DNA of 45,359 nt from Rhodospirillales bacterium (GTDB taxonomy: Bacteria; Pseudomonadota; Alphaproteobacteria; UBA828): positions 1-45,359 of the forward strand of contig JAPPNV010000099.1 in NCBI GenBank assembly GCA_028818565.1. Reading direction: 5' to 3'. Both the position numbers and the translations under genes were made by a program. Numbering within the stretch: the first letter of the stretch is position 1; the number at the start of each line of letters is the position of its first letter. Below the pieces are notes generated by a model. The model was given only the letters and a program-made list of their open reading frames with translations. It was not told where the DNA came from and searched no databases. This document shows, one piece after another, positions 7,197-19,775 of this stretch.

Positions 7197-8228
7197 GTGA
7201 AAGACATCGGACCAGCTATCCCTTCTACCAGCGCATTGCTCGCGTTCGAGGCGACCGCGCGCCTCGGCAGCGTCGTGGGTGCCGCCGAAGAGCTGGAGGT
7301 GTCGTCCCCTGCAATCAGCCGCCACATCTCCAAGCTGGAGAAAATGCTGAACGTTGGCCTGTTCGAGCGGAAGGGTCGAGGACTTGTTCTGACAAGAGGC
7401 GGCGAAGACTATTTTGCCTCTGTACGATCGTCGATCCAAAGTCTGCGTGCCGCGAGTAACAGGCTGCACTCAGAAAGGACAATTCTGACGATCGGCTGCA
7501 CGCAGGGCGTCTCGGTCATGGTTTTGCTTCGGCTCTACCCGAGGCTGAAGCAGATTCTAGACGCCAACATCGATCTCAGAATTTTGAACTGCGAATACGA
7601 AATGCTTCCCTCACTGTTGCCGGTGGGTGTCGACGTGCTCTTCGAGTGTTCGACCGATCACCCCGATCAACATTCAGAGAGGCTATTCGATGAAGAAGTC
7701 GTTCCGGTCGCCTCTCCCCACTTTGTCGGACGGTTCAAGCGAGAGCTCGCCGAACATTCGTCTCACTGGACCGGCGTGCCCCGTTTGGCATACACCCCGG
7801 CGGGAGCGGTTTGGGCATCGTGGGAGACATGGTTCACGTCAGAAAACTGCCAACCCCCGAAGGCTCCGATCGAAATGGACGAAAATGCTCTCTACTTGAT
7901 GGAAGCTGCGGCGAGGGGACAGGGAATCGCCCTGGGTTGGAATGGCTTTGTGAACAATTATTTCGAGATTGGCCGTCTCGTTCCAGTCAGGGACGAGTGG
8001 TTGCGGACGAAGGTCGGTCTGTACGGCGTTCTAACCACGACAGGACAAAGAAACCCCTGCGCACGACGCTTCCTGACAGAGCTTGTTGGTTTGGTAAGGG
8101 AATTGAGAATGGAAAGCGAAGACTTGAAGTGCATTAGAGAGCGGTGGGCGAGTCGACAGCCTGACATCACGCTTTATCAGTCCGAGGCACTGGCTCGAGA
8201 CGGCTGCGCGACAATAGCGAGTCGGTAA
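7197..8228 (+). CDS. LysR-family transcriptional regulator (GcvA-like)
   Basis: This 343-residue regulator has an N-terminal LysR winged helix-turn-helix (about residues 10-70: LLAFEATARLGSVVGAAEEL, then SSPAISRHISKLEKMLNVGLFER), and a C-terminal effector-binding region of the periplasmic-binding fold. The PST-ALLAFEA start and overall length match the GcvA-like branch. The GTG start at 7197 is set by the usual distance to the helix-turn-helix; GGAGGAG lies rather far upstream (about 20 bases). It ends head to head with the ammonia-lyase homologue (8299-9750). LysR regulators usually act on a divergent neighbour, but here the divergent side is the LuxR-type gene's 3' end, so the target is unclear. 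A link to gcvTHP 12 kb away is possible but unsupported. Confidence 0.9.
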   Translation: MKDIGPAIPSTSALLAFEATARLGSVVGAAEELEVSSPAISRHISKLEKMLNVGLFERKGRGLVLTRGGEDYFASVRSSIQSLRAASNRLHSERTILTIGCTQGVSVMVLLRLYPRLKQILDANIDLRILNCEYEMLPSLLPVGVDVLFECSTDHPDQHSERLFDEEVVPVASPHFVGRFKRELAEHSSHWTGVPRLAYTPAGAVWASWETWFTSENCQPPKAPIEMDENALYLMEAAARGQGIALGWNGFVNNYFEIGRLVPVRDEWLRTKVGLYGVLTTTGQRNPCARRFLTELVGLVRELRMESEDLKCIRERWASRQPDITLYQSEALARDGCATIASR

Positions 8229-8298
8229 CCGACACAAGCGTCGCGCCAATCAGGCACGGCCAAGTGGGGCGAGCGGGTCGGCGTCTGTTTCGTTCGCG

Positions 8299-9750
8299 TC
8301 AGGTCGGATAGATGTCGCGGCGCAAGGCGTCGGCGAGCGCGGCCACCACGGGGCCGAACGCCGGGCGCTCCGTCGGATCGGGCACGATCTCCCGGGCCAC
8401 GGCCTCGAGTCCGGCCAGTGGCGACGGAATCGGCCGGCCGGTGACGTCCAGGGCGCGGAGCGCAATCGGTACGAGGCTGGCGAGTGCCATGTCGAGGCAA
8501 CGGCCGGCGCGGTCTTGCTTGGACCACGCCAGAAACACCGGGCTCGCCACGTCGTTCTGGCCAAAACCGCCTGACTCGCTGCCGGGCAGCAGCGTGGCCT
8601 GGGCGTAGAGGCGGGCCTCCTCCTCGTAGCCGGTCTGGGCCATCGGCAAGCTCCCCAGGTAGGTGCGCGGCACATCGTCGTCGGCGTCTGCAGCGGCCAG
8701 CTGATGGGGGAGCAGCGAGACGGCACCGTCCAGAAGCTTCGCACCGTGGCGCTCGGCCAGAACGCAGAGATTGGCGCACGCGGCAGTGAGCGCGTCCATG
8801 GCGAGCACTCCGTGGGGGTTGTGGTAGCCTCCGTTGGAGACGAAGCGTCCGAAGGGTTGATCGTCGTCGTCGCCCTCGGCCCAAACCGGGTTGTCCGTCA
8901 CCGCCTGGAGCGATTCTGCCGCGACCTCGGCAGCCATTGACGCCGCGCGCCGCGCCTGGCCCAGCATGCGCGGAAGGATGCGGTAGCTGACGGGCGCCTG
9001 ATAGGGGCGCCGGTCCTCGCCGTGACCGTCCCCCACCAGTTCGCGCAGGCGACCCAGCGCCCAGCGATCGTGCGGGTTGTTCCAGTACTCGCCGAGCGCA
9101 GGGTCGAGATGATCGAGCGGTGCGTTGAAGGCCTCGAAGGAAAGCGCGAAGACCTGCGCCGCGACGTCGAGCCGGCCCTCGGCGACGAGCGCGGCATCGG
9201 TGACGAGTCCCGTGGCCGCAGGCGACCCGTTGACCAGGCACATCACGTCCTTGATTGCGGGCTCCGCCTCTTCCGCGAGGCCCATGAACAGATGGCTTAA
9301 CGACAGGATTTCGCCGGCCCCGCCCTGGCCCCGCGCAGGCACCGTGGGCATCGCGTCCCGGTCCAGCATGGCTGCGACGTGCTGGGCGATCTCCGGCGAC
9401 ACCGCCGAATGGCCTTCCACGAAGTTGGTCAGCCGCGCGAGCACGATGGCCCGGACGACGCGCTCGGGCAGGGGGTCGCCCCATGAGGTTGCGATCCGTG
9501 CCGGCGACATTCCCGCCCACTGCTCGCGTTGTTCTGGCGTCAGCTTGATGTGGGCGCGCTGACCCGGCCCCGTGGTCACGCCATAGATCGTGACGTCGGG
9601 GTCGCGCTCGATGATGCGCTCCAGGCGCTCCCGGCTCCGCGCCATGGCTGCGAGCGCGGTGGCGCCGAGCTCGACCCCTTCGCCTTTCCACGCCACGCGG
9701 CGGGCGGCTTCCACCGTGAGGTCGGCACGGGTCTCAACGAGTACCGTCAT
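8299..9750 (-). CDS. Histidine/phenylalanine ammonia-lyase homologue lacking MIO serine
   Basis: This 483-residue protein has the fold landmarks of the HAL/PAL superfamily: Tyr56 in TIYGVTTGPGQ (equivalent of HAL Tyr53), Asn174 in LVNGSPAATGL (HAL Asn195), and a YRILPRMLGQ segment. The cofactor motif, normally GSVGASGDLAPL, reads RGQGGAGEILSLSH at residues 140-153, so the Ala-Ser-Gly triad that cyclises to MIO is Gly144-Ala145-Gly146. The segment near HAL Glu414 reads GFGQNDVASP, with Asn in place of Glu. Without the serine MIO should not form, so classical deamination is doubtful; a different lyase chemistry or a non-catalytic role is possible. The ATG at 9750 has AGGAAA upstream. Most members are about 500 residues, so length is normal. 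Confidence 0.82.
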   Translation of the reverse strand: MTVLVETRADLTVEAARRVAWKGEGVELGATALAAMARSRERLERIIERDPDVTIYGVTTGPGQRAHIKLTPEQREQWAGMSPARIATSWGDPLPERVVRAIVLARLTNFVEGHSAVSPEIAQHVAAMLDRDAMPTVPARGQGGAGEILSLSHLFMGLAEEAEPAIKDVMCLVNGSPAATGLVTDAALVAEGRLDVAAQVFALSFEAFNAPLDHLDPALGEYWNNPHDRWALGRLRELVGDGHGEDRRPYQAPVSYRILPRMLGQARRAASMAAEVAAESLQAVTDNPVWAEGDDDDQPFGRFVSNGGYHNPHGVLAMDALTAACANLCVLAERHGAKLLDGAVSLLPHQLAAADADDDVPRTYLGSLPMAQTGYEEEARLYAQATLLPGSESGGFGQNDVASPVFLAWSKQDRAGRCLDMALASLVPIALRALDVTGRPIPSPLAGLEAVAREIVPDPTERPAFGPVVAALADALRRDIYPT

Positions 9751-9921
9751 GATCCATTTCCTAATCGGACGACTTGCGGGGCTCTTCGGGGACGTTCGTC
9801 ACCGCCCCGCGAGGTGGCAGGACATATCGAATAATCCGGCTTCAGTTTGGGAACAAGAACGGGGCGACATGCGTCCCGATCAACGCAAGCCCGCCGATTG
9901 CAATGACTTACGGAAGAGAGG

Positions 9922-10014
9922 TGGCGGAGGGAGTGGGATTCGAACCCACGGTACGGCTTGTCACCGTACAACGGTTTAGCAAACCGCCGCCTTCGACCAC
10001 TCGGCCATCCCTCC
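9922..10014 (-). tRNA. tRNA-Ser (anticodon GCU)
   Basis: This 93-nt class II tRNA reads on the minus strand. The acceptor stem GGAGGGA pairs with TCCCTCC, followed by discriminator G and an encoded CCA end (complement of 9922-9924). The T arm contains GGTTCGAATCC and the D arm GCCGAGTGG. The anticodon GCT is the complement of 9978-9980 in the loop of GGTTTGCTAAACC. A long variable arm, GTACGGTGACAAGCCGTAC, confirms serine. It reads AGC and AGU codons. Confidence 0.97.
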
Positions 10015-10043
10015 GGCGGTGTCCCGCGCCGGCGCGGCCCTGC

Positions 10044-10073
10044 TGTTTACAGAGCCGGCCGGAACGCTGTCAA
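10044..10073 (-). promoter_or_regulatory. Promoter of tRNA-Ser
   Basis: On the minus strand TTGACA (complement of 10068-10073) and TAAACA (complement of 10044-10049) are separated by 18 bases. The expected transcription start is about 20-25 bases before the tRNA 5' end at 10014. Confidence 0.6.
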
Positions 10074-10089
10074 CAAGCGGGCGCCGTGC

Positions 10090-10488
10090 CTATTCCGGCG
10101 GCTCCTCGCCCGCGAACTTCCAGTAGGTGTCCTTGGTGACGACCTTGCCGTCGTCGTTCAGCTCCCAGATGTCGCAGCCGAGCCAATTGATCTTGTTGCC
10201 GTTGGATTCGGTGCCGGTGACGGTCCACTCGGAGCAGCCCCGGTTGCCGCCGACCCAGTGGCTGCGAATGTGCCAGTACATGTCTGGGATAGTGCGAAAG
10301 CGCTTGTGCGCCATGGCGCGGATCTCGTCTATCCCGCGCGCCCGCCCGCCCTCGGGCGGCACGCCCCGCGAGAGCAGCCAGGACGAGTCCTCGGCGAAGT
10401 GCCGGACGATGCCCTCCACGTCGTGCCGGTTGTAGGCGTCGCAGACCTCGGTGATCACCGCGAGATTGCGGCGTTCGCTGTCGTTCAT
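10090..10488 (-). CDS. NTF2-fold (SnoaL-like) protein
   Basis: This 132-residue protein has the NTF2/SnoaL layout: an N-terminal helix (RRNLAVITEVCDAYNRHDVEGIV), the HFAEDSSWLL strand, the GIDEIRAMAHKRFRTIPDMYW segment, and closing strands ending in TKDTYWKF. Such proteins are small-molecule isomerases, hydratases or binding proteins; no catalytic residue is diagnostic. The ATG at 10488 follows GAGGGAG; upstream in-frame codons to 10563 lie in the preceding gene. It starts 13 bases after the aminotransferase gene, so the two are one transcription unit and may act on the same compound. Confidence 0.82.
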   Translation of the reverse strand: MNDSERRNLAVITEVCDAYNRHDVEGIVRHFAEDSSWLLSRGVPPEGGRARGIDEIRAMAHKRFRTIPDMYWHIRSHWVGGNRGCSEWTVTGTESNGNKINWLGCDIWELNDDGKVVTKDTYWKFAGEEPPE

Positions 10489-10501
10489 TCGTTCTCCCTC
10501 A

Positions 10502-11881
10502 CTAAGTGGTGGCGCCGGCGGCTGCCGGCCAATCTTCGACTGGACCTCCCACCGGGGCGGCATCGAGGAGATGGCCGTGATGGGCCAGGAAATCGTCGAT
10601 CGCGTCGACCAGGCCGGCGCAATCGGCCTCGGTGATGAGCAGCGAGAGCGCCATGTAGCCGCGCCGGGTGGTGAAGAACCCCTTGTCGATCAGGTAGAGA
10701 TGCAGCAGTTGGCGCAGGCGCTCGTCCCTGGGCTGGATGTCGCGGATGGAGCGGAGCGGCTCGCGCTGGAAGTGTATCGTCATGATCGAGCCGAGGCCGG
10801 TGACCTGGAACGGCGCCCCGTGCCGTTCGCCGAGGCCGTTGAGGGCGTCGCGCAGGGCAATGCCTGACTCGCTGAGCGCGACCTGCACCTCTGGCGTGAA
10901 GACCCTCTCAAGCCCTGCGGCGCCGGCCCTGAGCATGAGCACATTGTTGTTGAAGGTGCCGTGGTGGACGAAGGCGCCGGGCTTGGACGGATCGTAACGC
11001 GACATGATCTCGGCCGGGCCGCCGAAGGCGCCGCAAGAGATTCCGCCGCCGATATACTTGCCGAGCGTTGTCATATCCGGGGTGATGCCGAGCTGCCCCT
11101 GGCGCCCGTTGGGCGCGACCCGGGAGGTCATCACCTCGTCGAAGATCAGCAGCACGCCGTGGGCGCTGCAGGCTTCGCGCAGCGCGCGCAGAAAGCTGTC
11201 CTCGCCCGGTATTGCGCCGGACGCGCCCTGCATCGGCTCGACCAGCACGGCGGCGAGGCGCTCTGCATTCTCGCCGATCAGGCGGGTCGCCTCTTCCGGG
11301 TCGTTGTAGGGCGCGATGAGGAAGGGGAAGGGCAGGTTGATCGGCGCGCTCTTGCGGCCGAAGTAGATGGTGCCGCCGTGGTAGGCGCCCTCGAACACCA
11401 TGACCAGGTCCTTGCCGCTGACCGCGCGGGCGGTGACCAGCGCCATGCTGTTGGCCTCGGTGCCCGAGTTGGTGAAACGCACCTGCTCGATGGAAGAGAA
11501 TCGCGTGCAGACGAGAGTCGCCAAGCGCTCCTCGTAGGGGCTGGACGAGCCGTAGGCCATGCCGTCGTCGAGGGCAGCCATCAGAGCCTCGCGGATCACC
11601 GGATGCGAATGGCCGTAGAGGCCGGCGGAGAAGTCGCCGACGAAATCGGTGTAGGTGTGGCCGTCGACGTCGGTCAGCGTCGCGCCGGCTGCCGTCGCGA
11701 TCGCGAGCGGGAAGGGCGTGTAGAACATGCCGGTGCGGGTGTTGCCGCCGGGCATGCTCTGCTTGGCCCGCTCGTACTGCGCTTGGCTAGCGGGATTGGC
11801 GCTTGTGTAGCGTGCCTTGACCTCGTCGACCGCGCTGTCCAGGTCGAGATTTCGGCCGACCGTGTCGGGCCTCGTTGCCAT
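10502..11881 (-). CDS. Class III PLP-dependent aminotransferase (glutamate-1-semialdehyde mutase-like)
   Basis: This 459-residue enzyme has the class III aminotransferase fold. Visible motifs are the GGNTRTGMFY N-terminal segment typical of the glutamate-1-semialdehyde 2,1-aminomutase branch, NSGTEANSMALVTAR (138-152) for phosphate binding, the PLP-ring Asp248 in IFDEVMTSR, and Schiff-base Lys275 in TTLGKYIGGG. The length (normal HemL is about 430) and an NTF2-like partner suggest a catabolic aminotransferase or aminomutase rather than haem synthesis. The ATG at 11881 is clear. It is the first gene of a minus-strand pair and diverges from the Mo-hydroxylase operon. Its amino donor and acceptor are unknown. 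Confidence 0.9.
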   Translation of the reverse strand: MATRPDTVGRNLDLDSAVDEVKARYTSANPASQAQYERAKQSMPGGNTRTGMFYTPFPLAIATAAGATLTDVDGHTYTDFVGDFSAGLYGHSHPVIREALMAALDDGMAYGSSSPYEERLATLVCTRFSSIEQVRFTNSGTEANSMALVTARAVSGKDLVMVFEGAYHGGTIYFGRKSAPINLPFPFLIAPYNDPEEATRLIGENAERLAAVLVEPMQGASGAIPGEDSFLRALREACSAHGVLLIFDEVMTSRVAPNGRQGQLGITPDMTTLGKYIGGGISCGAFGGPAEIMSRYDPSKPGAFVHHGTFNNNVLMLRAGAAGLERVFTPEVQVALSESGIALRDALNGLGERHGAPFQVTGLGSIMTIHFQREPLRSIRDIQPRDERLRQLLHLYLIDKGFFTTRRGYMALSLLITEADCAGLVDAIDDFLAHHGHLLDAAPVGGPVEDWPAAAGATT

Positions 11882-11998
11882 AGTGCGCCTCGTTGCCGAT
11901 TGAGCGGCGGACGATACTCGCCCAGCCGGCGGCGCGGCAAGGATAGAGCGAACGCCTGCGCGCGTTCCGCAGGACGTGCTCCGCGCGCGTTCCGCGCG

Positions 11999-12043
11999 AC
12001 GCAGGCCGTGACCTTGGTGAGACAGGCGGGCTAATATCCCGCC
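11999..12043 (+). promoter_or_regulatory. Candidate promoter of Mo-hydroxylase operon within a dispersed element
   Basis: TAATAT (12032-12037) lies 18 bases after GTGACC (12008-12013). The -10 sits in the loop of a GGCGGG/CCCGCC inverted repeat (12025-12030 and 12038-12043), which could be an operator. Bases 11999-12030 are copy 2 of the dispersed element also at 191, 28430 and 37628, and match the last of these best. Confidence 0.4.
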
Positions 12044-12076
12044 CGCGTTTCAGAAACGGACGGAGGGGGGACGTCC

Positions 12077-12892
12077 ATGCCAGAGTTGCTTCGGCCCGGC
12101 TCGATCGACGAAGCGGCCGATCTTATCGCGCGCCACGGCGCCGCGGCTGCGGTGCTCGCAGGCGGCACCAGCCTGATGCGCGAGACCTATCCGTCGGACG
12201 GGGGCTACCTGATCGGGGTGGACCGCCTCGGCCTCGACAGGGTGGTGGCACGCGATGGTGGGTGGTCGGTGGGTGCCGCAGTCTCGCTCAGCGTGCTGCG
12301 CGAGGCCGTGCCGATCGCCGCGCTTCAGGCCGCGACCCGCGAGATCGGCGGGCCGGCGGTGCAGAACATGGCGACGGTCGGCGGCAACCTATTCGCCCGC
12401 GCGCCCTTCGGCGACCTCGCCCCGGCGTTGCTCGCCCTCGGCGCGCAGCTGGTCTTCGCCACGGCCGACGGCGAGACCACGCAACCCATCGAGGACTTCT
12501 ACGCCGGTTGGGCAGACGGCGCCCCGCCCTCTACGGGCCTGCTGACGCGGATCGAGCTCGACGCACCGAGCGGCGACTGCGCCTACTTGAAGTGCGCGCG
12601 ACGGCGCTATTCGACCCCGTCTGTGGTCACGGTTGCGGCCAGCGTGCAGAAGGACGGCGGCACGGTGACCGACGCCCGGATCGCGCTGAGCGGCGCGCAT
12701 GCGCAGCCCACCCGGTGTGCTGCGGCGGAGCAGGCGGTAATCGGCTCCAGCCTGGACGAGGCGGCTATCGCGGCCGCCGCCTCGGCCACCGAGGGAGCGG
12801 TCGAGCCCCGGACCGATGCGGTCGCGAGCGACTGGTATCGCCGGCGCATGACCGGCGTCTTCGTCGGCAGGGCGCTGGCGGCGCTCGCCTGA
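12077..12892 (+). CDS. Molybdenum hydroxylase, FAD-binding subunit
   Basis: This 271-residue subunit is the FAD-binding member of a xanthine-dehydrogenase-family complex (CoxM/NdhF type). It passes electrons from the 2Fe-2S clusters to an external acceptor. The FAD motifs are AGGTSL (residues 28-33) and TVGGNL (100-105); the C-terminal CO-dehydrogenase flavoprotein domain follows from about residue 165. Length is normal. GGAGGGGGG stands before the ATG. It is first in a four-gene set (FAD, 2Fe-2S, two molybdopterin subunits) with spacing of 22 bases and then 1-base overlaps, so it is certainly an operon. Confidence 0.94.
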   Translation: MPELLRPGSIDEAADLIARHGAAAAVLAGGTSLMRETYPSDGGYLIGVDRLGLDRVVARDGGWSVGAAVSLSVLREAVPIAALQAATREIGGPAVQNMATVGGNLFARAPFGDLAPALLALGAQLVFATADGETTQPIEDFYAGWADGAPPSTGLLTRIELDAPSGDCAYLKCARRRYSTPSVVTVAASVQKDGGTVTDARIALSGAHAQPTRCAAAEQAVIGSSLDEAAIAAAASATEGAVEPRTDAVASDWYRRRMTGVFVGRALAALA

Positions 12893-12914
12893 CGACGTTG
12901 AACGGGAGGCTAGG

Positions 12915-13406
12915 ATGGAAGACAAGCTGATACGCCTCGCGGTCAACGGCCGTGACGAGGCCGTGGTGATCCAGCCGCTGGCGACGCTGCAGGACGTGCT
13001 GCGGGACAAGCTGGAGCTGAACGCAGTCAAGAGCGGCTGCGGTCAGGGCGGCTGCGGCAGCTGCTCGGTACTGGTGGATGGGGAGCTTCAACTCTCGTGC
13101 CTGACGCTCGCCGAGCGGGTGGGAGACGCGGAGGTGACCACGCTCGAAGGCCTGAACGAGACCAATGCGATCGTGCCGCTGCAGCAGGCCTTCATCGAGA
13201 ACTACGCGGCGCAGTGCGGCTACTGCACCGCCGGCATGGTCATGGCGGCGAAGGCGCTGCTCGACCGCAACCCGGCGCCGAGCCGCGACGAGATCGTGGA
13301 AGGGCTCTCGGGCAATCTCTGTCGCTGTACCGGGTTCGCGCCCATCGTCCGCGCGGTGCAGCAGGCCGCACAGGCGCTCTCGGATACCGGGGAGGAGGCG
13401 AGCTAA
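12915..13406 (+). CDS. Molybdenum hydroxylase, 2Fe-2S subunit
   Basis: This 163-residue subunit has two 2Fe-2S clusters. The plant-ferredoxin-like cluster uses Cys42, Cys47, Cys50 and Cys62 (GCGQGGCGSC, then SC). The second, all-helical cluster uses Cys101, Cys104, Cys136 and Cys138 (CGYC and CRC). All eight ligands are present and the spacing is canonical. It carries electrons from the molybdenum centre to the FAD subunit. Its stop codon TAA overlaps the next ATG (TAATG at 13404-13408), indicating translational coupling to the first molybdopterin subunit. Confidence 0.96.
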   Translation: MEDKLIRLAVNGRDEAVVIQPLATLQDVLRDKLELNAVKSGCGQGGCGSCSVLVDGELQLSCLTLAERVGDAEVTTLEGLNETNAIVPLQQAFIENYAAQCGYCTAGMVMAAKALLDRNPAPSRDEIVEGLSGNLCRCTGFAPIVRAVQQAAQALSDTGEEAS

Positions 13407-14752
13407 TGTCGATGAAGGAACTCGGCGTCGTCGGCCGGAACGTGGGCCAGCGCGATCTCGAAAGCCACGCGCGCGGCCAGACCACCTACTACGAGGACGT
13501 TCACTACCCGCGCATGCTGCATCTCAAGATGCACCGGAGCGCGGAGCCCCACGCCAGGATCGTGAGCGTGGACACCAGCGCGGCCGAGGCGAGCCCCGGC
13601 GTCGTCTGCGTGCTCACCCACGAGGACCTGCCGGGCAAGAAGGTGTGGAACGGCCTTGCCGCCGTCGGTGTCGGCCCCGAGGACGAACCGATCCTCGCCT
13701 TCGACAAGGTGCGCTGGCGGGGCGAGCCCATCGTCGCCGTGCTGGGCGAGAGCGCCGAGGCCGCCCGTGCCGGCGCCGCCAAGGTGGAGGTGGACTACGA
13801 TCCGCTCCCGGGCGTGTTCGACGTGGAGGAGGCGATTTCCGGATCGCTGCCGGCACTGACCGCCCATTGGCCGAACAACCATTACATCTACCCCGACGAT
13901 CACGGCGCCGCGCAGATCCGCTTCGGCGACGTGGAGCAGGGATTCGCCGAGGCCGATCACATCGTCGAGGACAGCTACCAGACCAGCCCCATCGAGCAGG
14001 CGCCGATGGAGACCAATGGCTGCATCGCGAAGCCCGGCGGCGACGGGCGCATCACGGTGCACACCAACACGCAGGCCGTGCACTTCGCCCGCGACAACAC
14101 CGCCGCAATCCTCGGAATCGCGCCGGGCAAGCTGCGCTTCCTGGGCGGCACCGTGGGCGGTGGCTTCGGCGGCAAGGTGGACGTGGCGGTCGAGCCGATC
14201 TCGGTGCTGGCCGCGATGAGGACCGGGCGCCCGGTCAAGTTCAAGTACACGCGGGAAGAGGAGATGCAGGTCTCGTCCACCCGCTCCGCCTGGCGCCTCA
14301 ACATCAAGGACGGGGTGATGGACGACGGGCGCATCGTCGCCCGCAAGATCACCTCCTATCAGGATTCCGGCGCCTATCTGCGCTTCAGCTCCTACGGCTC
14401 GATGAAGCACGCCGGCCACATGCCGGGGCCCTACACGATCCCCAACGTCTGGGTCGATGCGCGGGTGGTGTTCACCAACCGGCCGCCGTCGAGCGCGATG
14501 CGGGGCTTCGGCGTCATGGCGGCCTCCTTCGCCATCGAGCTGCAGATGGACAAGGTGGCCAAGACCATCGGCATGGACCCGTGGCAGCTCCGGCTGCTCA
14601 ACGCCTACCGCAACGGCGACATGCGGGCGCACCGCAAGGTGAACGAGGACGCGGCGATGGTGGAGACCATCCAGGCGGCGGCTCAACTCGCCGGCCACGA
14701 GCTGCCGGCGGAATACCAAGCGATGACCTCCTGGGACAGAAAGGCAAGCTGA
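13406..14752 (+). CDS. Molybdenum hydroxylase, molybdopterin subunit, N-terminal half
   Basis: This 448-residue protein matches the first part of xanthine-dehydrogenase-type catalytic subunits. It includes the a/b-hammerhead domain (about 20-140) and the first molybdopterin-binding domain with GGGFGGK (251-257) and the MRGFG loop (365-369). It stops at TSWDRKAS, and the rest of the usual 780-residue subunit is encoded by the next gene, whose ATG overlaps this stop (TGATG at 14750-14754). A two-subunit arrangement of this size is known in nicotinate dehydrogenase of Eubacterium barkeri (NdhL and NdhM). A single inserted base near 14743 would instead fuse the two into one continuous subunit, so an indel cannot be excluded. 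Substrate unknown. Confidence 0.9.
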   Translation: MSMKELGVVGRNVGQRDLESHARGQTTYYEDVHYPRMLHLKMHRSAEPHARIVSVDTSAAEASPGVVCVLTHEDLPGKKVWNGLAAVGVGPEDEPILAFDKVRWRGEPIVAVLGESAEAARAGAAKVEVDYDPLPGVFDVEEAISGSLPALTAHWPNNHYIYPDDHGAAQIRFGDVEQGFAEADHIVEDSYQTSPIEQAPMETNGCIAKPGGDGRITVHTNTQAVHFARDNTAAILGIAPGKLRFLGGTVGGGFGGKVDVAVEPISVLAAMRTGRPVKFKYTREEEMQVSSTRSAWRLNIKDGVMDDGRIVARKITSYQDSGAYLRFSSYGSMKHAGHMPGPYTIPNVWVDARVVFTNRPPSSAMRGFGVMAASFAIELQMDKVAKTIGMDPWQLRLLNAYRNGDMRAHRKVNEDAAMVETIQAAAQLAGHELPAEYQAMTSWDRKAS

Positions 14753-15803: not shown

Positions 15804-16868
15804 TTGCTTCCGGTAAGGGTCTTGCGAGGCCGGGCCAGTCCGGGCCCGTGTCTCGGCCTACTGTGCGCCCTGATTTTGTCCGTCTTCTGGCCGGGTACTG
15901 CCGAAGCCGAAGAAGGGAACGGGCACAGCATCGCGACGCCGCTGCGCATCGTGAACCTGAACCCGTTTCACATGCTGTACGGCGTGCCGGGCTCCTTCGG
16001 CACGCCCGTGCTGACGCCGGGCTCAACAGAATTGATTGCGTCGATGAGTATCGCGTCCCACTCCCGCGGGGGCGTGTCCGGTCAGGAAGTCGTGGCCATC
16101 GATGGGGAGACACACAGGCAAGCGCTCTCCTTACGCCATGGATTTGGGAACGGCTGGGAATATCTGCTGGACCTTTCCTTCGTGTCGCACAGGCCCGGCA
16201 GCCTGGATAGCTTCATCGAGGAATGGCACCGAACCTTTGGCCTGTCTCAAGGGGACAGGCTCATTACCCCGCATGACCGCCTGACGCTTATCTACGTCGA
16301 TAGCGGCACGACTCATGTCGATATCGACAGCCGCGTTTCGTCGGTTGGAGACGTGAGCCTCGGCGTGGGCTATGCGCTGCCGTCGCCGCCATTTTCGAAT
16401 GACGGCATGGCGGTGCGGGCCATGGTCAAGCTCCCGACCGGCAATGAAGACCGTCTGGCCGGATCGGGAGGGTTTTCGGTCTCGGGTTGGGCCGAGACCT
16501 CGGGCGTGCTGTTTGGATCGGCAGCTTCACGCGAGTGGCTCTACGGCGCGACCTTGGGGGTCCTCGTCGGTGAGGCGCCGCCGAATTTGTCGGGAATCGG
16601 TGGCCGGTTCATCGCCTTCGGGCGCTTCGGCGTGACCTGGCAGCTAACCCCGCGCTTCAACCTGACGACGCAGGTCGACGTTCATTCCTCGCCCTACGGC
16701 GCTTCCGCCGTTTCTCCGCTCTCCGACCCTGTCGTCATGATCGGGCTGGGCGGGGCCTGGCGATTCAGCGAGGACATGACGCTGGAAATTGCGGTCACCG
16801 AGGACGATGGCACGTTTCATGCCGCGCCCGACACCGGCCTGCATGTGGCACTCCGTTGGAGATTGTAG
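15804..16868 (+). CDS. DUF3187-family outer-membrane-type protein
   Basis: This protein has up to 354 residues. A hydrophobic signal peptide (LGLLCALILSVFW, then TAEAEEG) ends near residue 36. The mature part opens with PLRIVNLNPFHMLYGVP, the recognisable start of DUF3187 proteins, and continues with alternating strands and a final aromatic residue pattern (LHVALRWRL) typical of outer-membrane beta-barrels. Function is unknown. There is no ATG: the first usable codon is TTG 15804, and TTG 15822 has a better AAGG ribosome site, so the start is uncertain. It begins 38 bases after the Mo-hydroxylase operon and may be read through from it, although no functional link is evident. Confidence 0.72.
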   Translation: MLPVRVLRGRASPGPCLGLLCALILSVFWPGTAEAEEGNGHSIATPLRIVNLNPFHMLYGVPGSFGTPVLTPGSTELIASMSIASHSRGGVSGQEVVAIDGETHRQALSLRHGFGNGWEYLLDLSFVSHRPGSLDSFIEEWHRTFGLSQGDRLITPHDRLTLIYVDSGTTHVDIDSRVSSVGDVSLGVGYALPSPPFSNDGMAVRAMVKLPTGNEDRLAGSGGFSVSGWAETSGVLFGSAASREWLYGATLGVLVGEAPPNLSGIGGRFIAFGRFGVTWQLTPRFNLTTQVDVHSSPYGASAVSPLSDPVVMIGLGGAWRFSEDMTLEIAVTEDDGTFHAAPDTGLHVALRWRL

Positions 16869-17059: not shown

Positions 17060-18967
17060 ATGCGCGATCATGCGGCGGCCGCGCGCGGCGCGGTCTCACA
17101 GGGCGATACCGGCGGGGGCAATGGCCGGCACGCCTCATCCACCGATTTCGAGCGGCTCGCCCAGCGGGCGATCTCGCGGCGCGGCTTTCTGAAAGCTGGC
17201 GCTGCATTCGGCGTGAGCGCGTTCGTGCTGGGCGCCGGCGGCAAGGCGGTGCCCCCGGCTCGTGCCGGGGTGGCGGGCCTCGACTTCACGCCCCTCGCTA
17301 CCAATGGCCTCGACACGGTCACCGTTCCGGAGGGCTTCAGCTGGCAGGTGGTTGCCCGCTGGGGCGACCCGCTCTGGTCGAGCGGCGCTGCCTTCGACCA
17401 TGCGACGCGGGGCACCGGCGAAAGCCAGGAGGCCGCGTTTGGCGACAACTGCGACGGCATGGCGCTCTTCAGCGATGGCGGGAAGAGCGTGCTCGCGGTG
17501 AACAACGAGTATGTGAACCTCGGCATCATGTTCGCCAACCGCGGGTCGGGTAAGCCCGAGACCGCCGACGACGTGCGCAAGTGCAAGGCCGGCCACGGCG
17601 TCTCCGTGATCGAGATCGCGCAAGCCGGCGGCGCCTGGGGGATCGTCCAGGATTCGCCCTACAACCGGCGCATCACGCCGGACACGCCGATGGAGATCAC
17701 CGGGCCCGCGCGCGGCCACGACCTGGTGAAGACCGCCGCCGATCCCGCCGGCACGACCGCGCTCGGCACCTGGAACAACTGCGGCAACGGTCGCACGCCC
17801 TGGGGCACCTATCTCGCCTGCGAGGAGAATTTCAACGGCTACTTCTCGTCGAGCGATCCCGACTTCGCGCTGCCCGCAGGCTTCAAGCGCTACGGCATCA
17901 AGGCGGAAGACCGCGGATATGCCTGGGCCATGACGGACGAGCGCTTCGACGTCTGCAAACACCCGAACGAGCCGCACCGTGCCGGCTACGTGGTGGAGAT
18001 CGACCCGTTGGATCCGGCGTCCACGCCCAAGAAGCGCACGGCGCTCGGCCGCTTCAAGCACGAGAACGCGGAAGTGACGCTGGCGGCCGACGGCCGGGTC
18101 GTGGTCTATCTCGGCGACGACGAGCGGGGCGAGTTCCTCTATCGCTTCGTCAGCGACGGCGTCTACACGGAAGGCGGCGACAACGCCGACCTGCTAGGGA
18201 GCGGCTCGCTCTCCGTCGCCAGGTTCGCGGATGACGGCAGCGGTGAGTGGCTCGCGCTCACACCCGAGGCCACGGGCATGGCGTCCCAGGCCGAGATCAG
18301 CATCCACACCCGCCAGGCGGCATCGGCGGTGGGCGCCACGACCATGGACCGGCCCGAGTGGGTGGCGGCCAACCCGAACAAGGCCGAGGCCTACTGCTGC
18401 CTCACCAACAACAGGAACCGCGGCGTCAAGCCCAACGCGGGCGGCGACCTGACGCCGGTCGGTGGCCCCAACCCGAGGGAGGCGAACAAGTACGGCCAGA
18501 TCGTGCGCTGGGCGCCCGACGGCGGCGACCATGCGGCCGATACCTTCGCCTGGGACCTCTACGTCGTCGCCGGCAACCCGACGGTCCACGCCGACGCGCG
18601 TGCGGGTTCCGCCAACGTGAACGCGGACAACATGTTCAACTCGCCGGACGGTCTCGCCTTCGACAGCCAGGGCCGCCTCTGGATCCAGACGGACGGCACG
18701 TATTCCAACGAGGGCGATTTCGCCGGCCAGGGCAACAACATGATGCTGCTCGGCGATCCCGCCACAGGCGAGATTCGCCGCTTCCTCGTCGGCCCACGGG
18801 AATGCGAGGTGACCGGCATCACCTGGAGCGCCGACCGCAAGACCATGTTCATCGGCATCCAGCACCCCGGCGAGAGGGGCGACAGCCACTTCCCCGAGGG
18901 CGGCGACGCCGCGCCGCGCTCATCCGTGGTAGCGATCACCCGCGACGACGGCGGCCCGATCGGCTGA
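17060..18967 (+). CDS. phoX: PhoX-family phosphatase, Tat-exported
   Basis: This 635-residue periplasmic phosphatase is of the PhoX type, which use a calcium-iron cofactor in characterised members. The N-terminal twin-arginine signal is SRRGFLK (39-45) followed by a hydrophobic stretch and an ARA site. The body has PhoX signatures such as DNCDGMALF, the CEENFNGYF segment, EPHRAGYVVEIDP and the late NMFNSPDGLAFDSQGRLWIQTDG region (split here for length). The ATG at 17060 is chosen because GGGAG lies 6 bases before it; ATG 17054 and GTG 17027 are less likely. A strong hairpin follows the stop. It is probably monocistronic; it releases phosphate from organic esters outside the inner membrane. 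Confidence 0.92.
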   Translation: MRDHAAAARGAVSQGDTGGGNGRHASSTDFERLAQRAISRRGFLKAGAAFGVSAFVLGAGGKAVPPARAGVAGLDFTPLATNGLDTVTVPEGFSWQVVARWGDPLWSSGAAFDHATRGTGESQEAAFGDNCDGMALFSDGGKSVLAVNNEYVNLGIMFANRGSGKPETADDVRKCKAGHGVSVIEIAQAGGAWGIVQDSPYNRRITPDTPMEITGPARGHDLVKTAADPAGTTALGTWNNCGNGRTPWGTYLACEENFNGYFSSSDPDFALPAGFKRYGIKAEDRGYAWAMTDERFDVCKHPNEPHRAGYVVEIDPLDPASTPKKRTALGRFKHENAEVTLAADGRVVVYLGDDERGEFLYRFVSDGVYTEGGDNADLLGSGSLSVARFADDGSGEWLALTPEATGMASQAEISIHTRQAASAVGATTMDRPEWVAANPNKAEAYCCLTNNRNRGVKPNAGGDLTPVGGPNPREANKYGQIVRWAPDGGDHAADTFAWDLYVVAGNPTVHADARAGSANVNADNMFNSPDGLAFDSQGRLWIQTDGTYSNEGDFAGQGNNMMLLGDPATGEIRRFLVGPRECEVTGITWSADRKTMFIGIQHPGERGDSHFPEGGDAAPRSSVVAITRDDGGPIG

Positions 18968-18985
18968 CGGATCGCTCTACCGTTT

Positions 18986-19011
18986 CGGGGCCGCCTCTCG
19001 GGGCGGCCCCG
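18986..19011 (+). terminator. Stem-loop terminator after phoX
   Basis: CGGGGCCGCC (18986-18995) pairs perfectly with GGCGGCCCCG (19002-19011) across a 6-base loop, 18 bases after the PhoX stop. A weak T run follows (TTCGG), so it is a GC-rich intrinsic-like terminator. Confidence 0.65.
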
Positions 19012-19113
19012 TTCGGCAGCCCTCGTCCGTTCTCGACGCCCGCGATTGCCTGGCAGCCTCAAGACCGGCTCTCGTCATCTGATTTTCTTATGAGAAGAGG
19101 CAGAAAACGGTAT

Positions 19114-19160
19114 TTGAGACTATGCCGCTGCATGCATATCTTTCACTCGTAACGGCATAG
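19114..19160 (+). promoter_or_regulatory. Candidate promoter of the small exported protein, with inverted repeat
   Basis: TTGAGA (19114-19119) and TATCTT (19137-19142) are 17 bases apart in an AT-richer pocket. An inverted repeat CTATGCCG (19120-19127) / CGGCATAG (19153-19160) brackets the -10 and could be an operator. The leader to the ATG at 19238 would be about 90 bases. Confidence 0.45.
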
Positions 19161-19237
19161 CGCTGACTGACGGTCAATCGACTCCCTCAGCCGGCGGCCG
19201 GTTCTGAAGAGCAACCGTATGTGAGTAGGAGGCGACG

Positions 19238-19429
19238 ATGAGGACTCAAGAGAACGCTGCAAACCGCGAGACCGAACAACGCATGGATGGCGGGAACAAG
19301 AGAGTCTGGCTGCGCCGAGGGGCCTTCGTCGCCTTGATCGCGTCCGTCGTAGCCGTCACCACGACCGTGGTGCTCATCGGCGGATCGGAGCCGGCGAACG
19401 CCTGCTTCTTCGGCATTCCCTGCTTTTGA
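19238..19429 (+). CDS. Small signal-anchored protein ending CFFGIPCF
   Basis: This 63-residue protein is unrecognised. It has a charged N-terminus (residues 1-27, with WLRR), one hydrophobic segment (about 28-48, AFVALIASVVAVTTTVVLIG), and a short tail GSEPANA-CFFGIPCF. If signal peptidase cut after ANA the product would be an octapeptide with two cysteines; alternatively the segment stays as a membrane anchor. A strong GGAGG ribosome site 6 bases before the ATG and normal codon use support translation. It stands between phoX and the glycine riboswitch and has its own candidate promoter. A lipoprotein signal is unlikely, since ANAC is a poor lipobox. Confidence 0.65.
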   Translation: MRTQENAANRETEQRMDGGNKRVWLRRGAFVALIASVVAVTTTVVLIGGSEPANACFFGIPCF

Positions 19430-19517
19430 GGGGTGAGCCTGGTTGATTCTGTCGATGCGGTCGGCCCTGTGGCTGCGTGGCGGGTCCGCGCCGCCACGGG
19501 GCCCCGGCCGGGCGCGG

Positions 19518-19545
19518 TTGACCGGTGCGGCTAAGTCAGTAGTAT
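19518..19545 (+). promoter_or_regulatory. Promoter of the gcvTHP riboswitch transcript
   Basis: TTGACC (19518-19523) and TAGTAT (19540-19545) are 16 bases apart. Transcription would start near 19552, some 20 bases before the first glycine aptamer. Confidence 0.6.
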
Positions 19546-19573
19546 TGCCGCACCCGGTTTTGCAGATGAACCC

Positions 19574-19770
19574 CGCGGGAGAGTTCGTGCGGTCCGTCCG
19601 TGCGGCGCCGAAGGAGCAAGCGTCCCGGAAACTCTCAGGCATCAGGGACCGCGGGAGGATGCAACTCTGGAAAGCAGGCGGCGCACGGCGCGCCGCCTCA
19701 CCGACGGGGTAAGCCGGCGGCAGGCTATTGGCTGCCCGGTTAATCTCTCAGGTTCCGAGACAGAGGGGGC
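19574..19770 (+). ncRNA. Tandem glycine riboswitch
   Basis: Two glycine aptamers stand in series before gcvT. The first (about 19576-19651) has GGAGAG, the core GCCGAAGGAGCAAG, then GGAAACTCTCAGGCA and AGGGACCG. The second (about 19655-19770) has GGAGGATGCAACTCTGG, ACCGACGGGGTAAGCC, TTAATCTCTCAGG and CCGAGACAGAGGGGG. These are the hallmark conserved segments of the family. Glycine binding is expected to turn on expression of the glycine cleavage operon directly downstream. The gene order makes this a certain assignment. Confidence 0.95.
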
Positions 19771-19775
19771 ACCGG

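What the first reader, a model, noticed from the sequence alone, without database searches (positions are those of the whole stretch)
19238..19429. 63-residue protein whose predicted processed product is a two-cysteine octapeptide
Seen: strong GGAGG, a hydrophobic segment, ANA just before the final CFFGIPCF, and a candidate promoter with an operator-like repeat. Inference: signal-peptidase cleavage after ANA would release C-F-F-G-I-P-C-F, which could close as a disulfide ring; otherwise the tail is displayed on the membrane. Position between phoX and the glycine riboswitch gives no hint of role.
Basis: partly seen in the sequence, partly recalled or inferred. Interest (0 to 1): 0.6.

Follow-up and report, generated by a model that had tools for sequence, protein, structure and literature searches.

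The report
Genus-restricted exported small-peptide gene family
The tiny gene is real and belongs to a small, repeatedly lost gene family known so far only from one genus of uncultured, probably sponge-dwelling bacteria; its protein looks built to be threaded through the inner membrane and to display or release a short greasy tail that keeps both its cysteines, but what the tail does is unknown.

Summary
The ORF (19238-19429, 63 aa) is real. Five intact members plus one decayed copy were found in 4 of 8 genomes of the genus, and none elsewhere: full family and order, ~780 sampled genomes of class and phylum, viral contigs, phages, plasmids. Orthologues at the same phoX-gcvT site show purifying selection (dN/dS about 0.27-0.38). 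Start, Shine-Dalgarno, hydrophobic segment, P-A-x-A-C and a second terminal cysteine are invariant; tails are CFFGIPCF, CFLGIPCW, CLLPGIPC and CLIFDYIC. Invariant Ala at -3/-1 with variable -2 fits signal peptidase I; the lipobox does not fit. The gene is a self-contained unit (AT-rich promoter-like box, 5' leader, ORF, GC-rich hairpin) that sits in different intergenic sites and is absent, with intact flanks, from sister genomes. The box (19087-19117) also precedes other genes in the genus, among them a polyketide synthase and one NHLP-leader RiPP precursor, suggesting a shared expression programme. Best reading: an exported micro-peptide precursor of a new lineage-specific family; main rival: an uncleaved single-pass membrane protein.

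The parts
19087..19117 (+). AT-rich promoter-like box CTTAT-N10-(C)AAAA-N3-GTATTnGA; conserved upstream of every intact family member and of several unrelated genes in the genus
   Evidence: Alignment of upstream regions; only match in the window, 0 expected; 24 or more sites in 7 of 8 genus genomes versus 1 in all for the reversed control pattern. The sigma factor or regulator is unknown.
   Evidence: repeat not kept in G002, G003 or G007
19227..19232 (+). Shine-Dalgarno AGGAGG
   Evidence: sequence; GGAGG conserved in all six copies, including the decayed one
19238..19429 (+). 63-residue small-protein gene: hydrophilic basic N-terminus (1-28), hydrophobic helix (29-47), c-region GGSEPANA (48-55), tail CFFGIPCF (56-63)
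19388..19402 (+). codons for E-P-A-N-A: predicted signal peptidase I site, cleavage after 19402 (Ala55)
   Evidence: P52, A53, A55 and C56 invariant, residue 54 N or H; prediction only
19403..19426 (+). codons for the predicted product CFFGIPCF
   Evidence: both cysteines invariant in five members
19463..19503 (+). GC-rich hairpin GGCCCTGTGGC / GCCACGGGGCC after the ORF; similar hairpins follow G003, G000b and G007; no T run
   Evidence: read from sequence and alignment; no canonical terminator found
19566..19771 (+). tandem glycine riboswitch of the gcvT operon: neighbour, not part of the unit
   Evidence: Rfam RF00504 at 60.8 and 41.3 bits; present without the small gene in sister genomes

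Best explanation
A genuine, genus-restricted gene family for exported micro-peptide precursors. Shown: the gene is under protein-level selection, with its own conserved promoter-like box, 5' leader, ribosome site and downstream hairpin. Inferred, in order of decreasing confidence: (1) the basic N-terminus stays in the cytoplasm and the hydrophobic segment inserts through the Sec/YidC route, putting the C-terminus in the periplasm; (2) signal peptidase I cuts after A-x-A; (3) the released 7-8-residue hydrophobic peptide (here CFFGIPCF) closes through its two cysteines in the oxidising periplasm; (4) it works outside the cytoplasm as a small signal or effector, made in the same programme as some specialised-metabolite genes. 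The gene is dispensable: it has been repeatedly lost or moved between intergenic sites.
For: Homologues in 4 of 8 genus genomes. Invariant residues are concentrated in the membrane/c-region: TTVVxIGG, P-A-x-A-C and the final C. dN/dS in residues 28-55 of orthologues 0.13-0.21, against about 0.5-0.65 for residues 1-27. G002 and G003 keep an identical CFLGIPCW tail through two synonymous changes. Ala at -3 and -1 invariant with -2 variable, Pro at -4 and Gly-Gly before it fit signal peptidase I. All members have a 19-residue segment of Kyte-Doolittle mean 2.5-2.8 and a net +3 to +6 N-terminus. AlphaFold2 gives one long helix (residues 3-48) and an unstructured tail. The upstream box also precedes a PKS gene in three genomes, an NHLP-leader RiPP precursor, a 33-aa membrane ORF and others; the NHLP precursor also shares the CGGCATAGCGC leader block at the same spacing (67 versus 66 bases; block-2 P 2.5e-4 to 5e-3).
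Against: No expression, cleavage or disulfide data. The hydrophobic segment (about 19-20 residues) is long for a cleaved signal peptide and equally fits an anchor. The 27-residue N-terminus is more than a signal peptide needs, and parts of it are conserved. No processing, export or receptor gene travels with it: flanking genes differ among copies. Between the two subfamilies dN/dS is about 1 in several pairs, so selection on the paralogues is unproven. Only five intact members. The NHLP precursors of G002 and G006 lack the box. The box was found by searching with the family's own upstream sequence, so its first block is not independent evidence.
Confidence: 0.45

Rival explanations
1. Uncleaved single-pass small membrane protein (N-in, C-out): the cysteine-bracketed hydrophobic tail is a periplasmic tip that forms an internal or intermolecular disulfide, or binds a partner such as a transporter or sensor.
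For: 20-residue hydrophobic segment, conserved residues in the cytoplasmic N-terminus (Q4, E5, A7, R10, Q14, R26), one continuous predicted helix.
Against: Ala at -3/-1 invariant with -2 free is better explained by cleavage; no conserved neighbour suggests a partner.
Confidence: 0.33
2. Membrane-acting toxin of the type I toxin-antitoxin kind: a small hydrophobic protein, multi-copy in intergenic sites, with a 5' leader that could be an antisense target.
For: Dispersed and repeatedly lost monocistronic units, decayed copy in G007, 120-150 base 5' leader.
Against: No promoter-like site on the minus strand over 18950-19600; no convincing conserved leader structure; conserved AxA-C and C-terminal cysteine are not explained; the box is shared with PKS and RiPP genes.
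Confidence: 0.1
3. A lipoprotein: Cys56 is lipidated by Lgt and cut by LspA, leaving an eight-residue lipopeptide.
For: Hydrophobic segment followed by A-x-A-C with invariant Cys56.
Against: The lipobox rule (from memory: Leu-like at -3, small or aliphatic at -2, no charge just before) is not met: Pro at -4, Ala at -3, Asn/His at -2, Glu at -5 in two members.
Confidence: 0.05
4. Evolutionary leftover: a detached N-terminal membrane anchor (for example of a DUF2291 protein) that acquired a short tail and has no specific function.
For: The profile matches the N-terminal anchor of a DUF2291 protein in a distant genome (E 9.4e-6 for one genome; hhalign probability 71%; Pfam PF10054).
Against: Purifying selection, conserved ribosome site and upstream box; the match lies in low-complexity hydrophobic sequence and is borderline over 398 genomes.
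Confidence: 0.05
5. Chance ORF.
For: Short; a GC-rich genome makes many spurious frames.
Against: Homologues, synonymous bias and conserved signals.
Confidence: 0.02

Closest known systems
Signal-peptide-derived peptide pheromones of Gram-positive bacteria (cCF10/cAD1 type; from general knowledge)
   Same: A 7-8-residue hydrophobic peptide comes out of a precursor dominated by a signal peptide.
   Different: There the pheromone is cut from within a lipoprotein signal peptide; here it would be the mature C-terminus, with two cysteines, in an alphaproteobacterium. No receptor or Eep-type protease was found linked.
NHLP-leader RiPP precursors (TIGR03793) of the same genus, e.g. G007:C127 ending AISAG-LCCCGL
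   Same: Tiny cysteine-rich C-terminal core; the G007 gene shares box and leader block with this family.
   Different: NHLP precursors have a soluble nitrile-hydratase-like leader and a divergent C39-peptidase/ABC exporter operon; this family has a membrane/signal segment and no linked exporter.
Small single-pass membrane proteins and type I toxins (Hok, TisB; from general knowledge)
   Same: Size, one hydrophobic helix, dispersed monocistronic copies.
   Different: Invariant A-x-A-C and terminal cysteine, long basic N-terminus, no antisense promoter seen.
DUF2291 (PF10054) N-terminal anchor
   Same: Basic residues then a TTVVxIG-containing hydrophobic segment.
   Different: DUF2291 has about 200 residues with a large periplasmic domain; here only an eight-residue tail follows.

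Membership tests
Signal peptidase I substrate (secreted peptide precursor) | basic n-region, hydrophobic h-region, small residues at -3/-1 | tested here: met
   All five members; the h-region is long
Signal peptidase I substrate (secreted peptide precursor) | actual cleavage | not testable with these tools
   needs expression and mass spectrometry
Bacterial lipoprotein | lipobox with acceptable -4 to -1 residues before Cys | tested here: not met
   PANA-C / PAHA-C: Pro at -4, Asn or His at -2; rule quoted from memory
NHLP-leader RiPP precursor | match to TIGR03793 | tested here: not met
   NCBIfam scan of all five members gives no such match
RiPP precursor in general | modification or export enzymes encoded nearby | tested here: not met
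   neighbours are phoX/gcvTHP (window), mcm and an ABC transporter (G000b), and unrelated genes (G007)
AgrD-type cyclic signal peptide | adjacent agrB and sensor kinase | tested here: not met
   none recognised among the flanking genes by reading their translations
Type I toxin-antitoxin | antisense RNA to the leader or ORF | tested here: inconclusive
   no minus-strand promoter-like site, but the promoter type of this organism is unknown
Type I toxin-antitoxin | toxicity on induction | not testable with these tools
   experiment needed
DUF2291 | match to PF10054 | tested here: not met
   Pfam scan of the protein at E up to 10 lists no PF10054

The most novel reading that the evidence does not exclude
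A previously undescribed class of Gram-negative peptide precursor in which signal peptidase I alone releases a cysteine-bracketed hydrophobic octapeptide, with diversified tails on a conserved secretion segment, co-regulated with polyketide and RiPP genes in sponge symbionts and acting as a cell-cell or host-directed signal.
Probability: 0.2. Interest if true: 0.8.

Novelty: new member of a known kind. Interest (0 to 1): 0.5.

Why it matters
If the tail is released, it would be one of the simplest secreted peptide systems known in Gram-negative bacteria: no dedicated protease, modification enzyme or exporter, just signal peptidase I and a disulfide. The shared promoter-like box gives a handle on an unrecognised regulon in uncultured symbionts that includes a large polyketide synthase and a RiPP precursor. 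If it is not released, it is one more lineage-specific small membrane protein family.

Tried and rejected
Pfam, NCBIfam and PDB sequence search: no family; all five members give a sub-threshold NCBIfam match (NF038083, E about 0.001, far below cut-off) over the hydrophobic part. Viral contigs, plasmids and phages: none. Class-level profile hits were inspected and are composition matches inside unrelated frames; the one phylum-level hit is DUF2291. A conserved RNA structure in the 5' leader: not supported (13 weak pairs, -3.9 kcal/mol). A sigma-70 match TTGAGA-17-TATCTT at 19114-19142 is not clearly kept in relatives. A link to glycine regulation was rejected: riboswitch and phoX stay adjacent without the gene in five sister genomes. 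Recent mobile-element insertion: no terminal repeats or target duplications were demonstrated; site-A copies diverge in step with the species tree, so ancestral presence with repeated loss is the simpler account. TIGR03793 hits with open frames of about 207-238 aa are probably nitrile-hydratase-like enzymes, not precursors (inference from length). Literature searches for the family or for NHLP peptides of sponge Rhodospirillales gave nothing relevant.

Full report
Observation. The 63-codon ORF at 19238-19429 is present as described, with AGGAGG at 19227-19232, a hydrophobic segment at residues 29-47, ANA before CFFGIPCF, phoX upstream (PF05787) and a tandem glycine riboswitch downstream (RF00504). 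The inverted repeat CTATGCCG/CGGCATAG exists.

Is it a gene? Protein and DNA searches found a paralogue in the same genome (G000:C103:42035-42223), orthologues in G002 and G003 between the same two neighbours, and a fourth homologue in G007. The five proteins align over their whole length with 23 invariant residues, including M1, Q4, E5, most of TTVVxIGG, P52, A53, A55, C56 and C62. Among the three site-A orthologues synonymous change exceeds non-synonymous change (dN/dS about 0.27-0.38; Fisher P 0.002, 0.011, 0.0007). The helix and c-region are the most constrained (0.13-0.21); the first 27 residues are less so (about 0.5-0.65). Between the two subfamilies dN/dS is near 1 in several pairs, so selection there is unproven.

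Tail. Site-A tails are CFFGIPCF, CFLGIPCW and CFLGIPCW (the last two identical in protein but not in DNA); the other two copies end CLLPGIPC and CLIFDYIC. Both cysteines and hydrophobicity are kept; the inner residues vary between subfamilies.

Topology and processing. A basic N-terminus, a 19-20-residue hydrophobic stretch, Gly-Gly, Pro at -4, Ala at -3 and -1 with free -2, then Cys: this fits signal peptidase I and fails the lipobox (inference from established signal rules). AlphaFold2 on the single sequence gives one helix (residues 3-48) and a disordered tail, mean pLDDT 71. It cannot decide between cleaved and anchored forms.

Distribution. The held genomes of the family (21) and order (22), plus about 780 genomes sampled from class and phylum, gave no other member. 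One match at E 9.4e-6 is the N-terminal anchor of a DUF2291 protein: similar in the hydrophobic part, possibly a distant origin, possibly convergence. A scan of GTDB species genomes returned three named records, all 'Rhodospirillales bacterium' MAGs called APA_bin_60, RHO1_bin_88 and RHO3_bin_58. The codes suggest the sponges Aplysina aerophoba and Rhopaloeides odorabile, both sampled in PMC8163846; that link is my inference.

Locus history. G001, G004, G005, G006 and G007 have phoX and the riboswitch separated by only a short spacer; G001, G005 and G004 have mcm followed by the ABC transporter without the G000b paralogue. G007 carries a decayed copy at a fourth place, with intact leader and start but broken after about 30 codons. 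On a tree of mcm plus gcv sequence the site-A carriers G000, G002 and G003 are scattered, while their proteins diverge roughly with the tree, so ancestral presence with repeated loss is the simplest account. Incomplete assemblies (G002 and G003 are 62-67% complete) limit claims about extra copies in those two.

Transcription unit. Upstream, all intact copies share CTTAT-N10-(C)AAAA-N3-GTATTnGA (first base A in G003) followed about 66 bases later by CGGCA(T/C)(A/G). A GC-rich hairpin follows the ORF in four copies. In the window this box occurs once with none expected. In the eight genus genomes the pattern gave 24 or more sites against one for the reversed control. Grouped by downstream gene: this family; a 33-aa hydrophobic ORF (G000, G002); a large modular PKS with the box 215-217 bases before its ATG in G001, G005 and G007; Memo/AMMECR1 (G007); an RTX-repeat protein (G002); a 61-aa ORF (G006); an NHLP-leader RiPP precursor with core LCCCGL beside a C39-peptidase/ABC exporter (G007); and a group with no clear ORF where the box overlaps a GGCATAAG/CTTATGCC hairpin. 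Some of these, especially three-mismatch single sites, may be chance. The NHLP leader resembles the family leaders about as much as paralogue leaders resemble each other; its second block, not used to find it, has P between 2.5e-4 and 5e-3. The NHLP precursors of G002 and G006 lack the box (that of G004 was not read), so the link is partial.

Conclusion. A real, new, genus-restricted small-protein family. I commit to an exported micro-peptide precursor processed by signal peptidase I (0.45) over an uncleaved membrane protein (0.33). That it is a signal or effector made alongside specialised metabolites is inference.

Noticed in passing
L168 (G007:C127:78000-94000), precursor near 8051-8302 minus, exporter genes 8680-14716 plus: NHLP-leader RiPP precursor with the tiny core LCCCGL next to a divergent HlyD / C39-peptidase ABC / ABC operon; G002 and G006 have relatives ending AISAGLCCCW.
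   Followed up: partly
L178, L172, L170 (G001:C74, G005:C71, G007:C266): A large type I polyketide synthase (KS-AT-DH-ER-KR-ACP in G001) has the same promoter-like box 215-217 bases before its start codon in three genomes.
   Followed up: partly
L176 position 1542 (G000:C393:27541) and L134 position 1501 (G002:C3:5368): 33-residue hydrophobic ORF [MV]FK[YF]G[LF]NDPVVRSALAAFVGA[VI]SFMALLSFLLD downstream of the box, conserved in two genomes; no NCBIfam match.
   Followed up: partly
L125, L137, L173, L175, L169 (G001, G000, G005, G002, G007): Conserved element with hairpin GGCATAAG/CTTATGCC, then ATGAGAATTCGGTATTGGA and a conserved stretch without an obvious ORF; no Rfam match in four of the loci. 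Possibly an sRNA.
   Followed up: partly
L089 after position 2298 (G003:C251): Between mcm and the ABC transporter G003 carries a RidA-like gene that in G007 lies in a different context, so this intergenic site is a gene-turnover spot.
   Followed up: no
window 15804-16868 +: DUF3187 protein (PF11383, E 1.2e-37) upstream of phoX.
   Followed up: no
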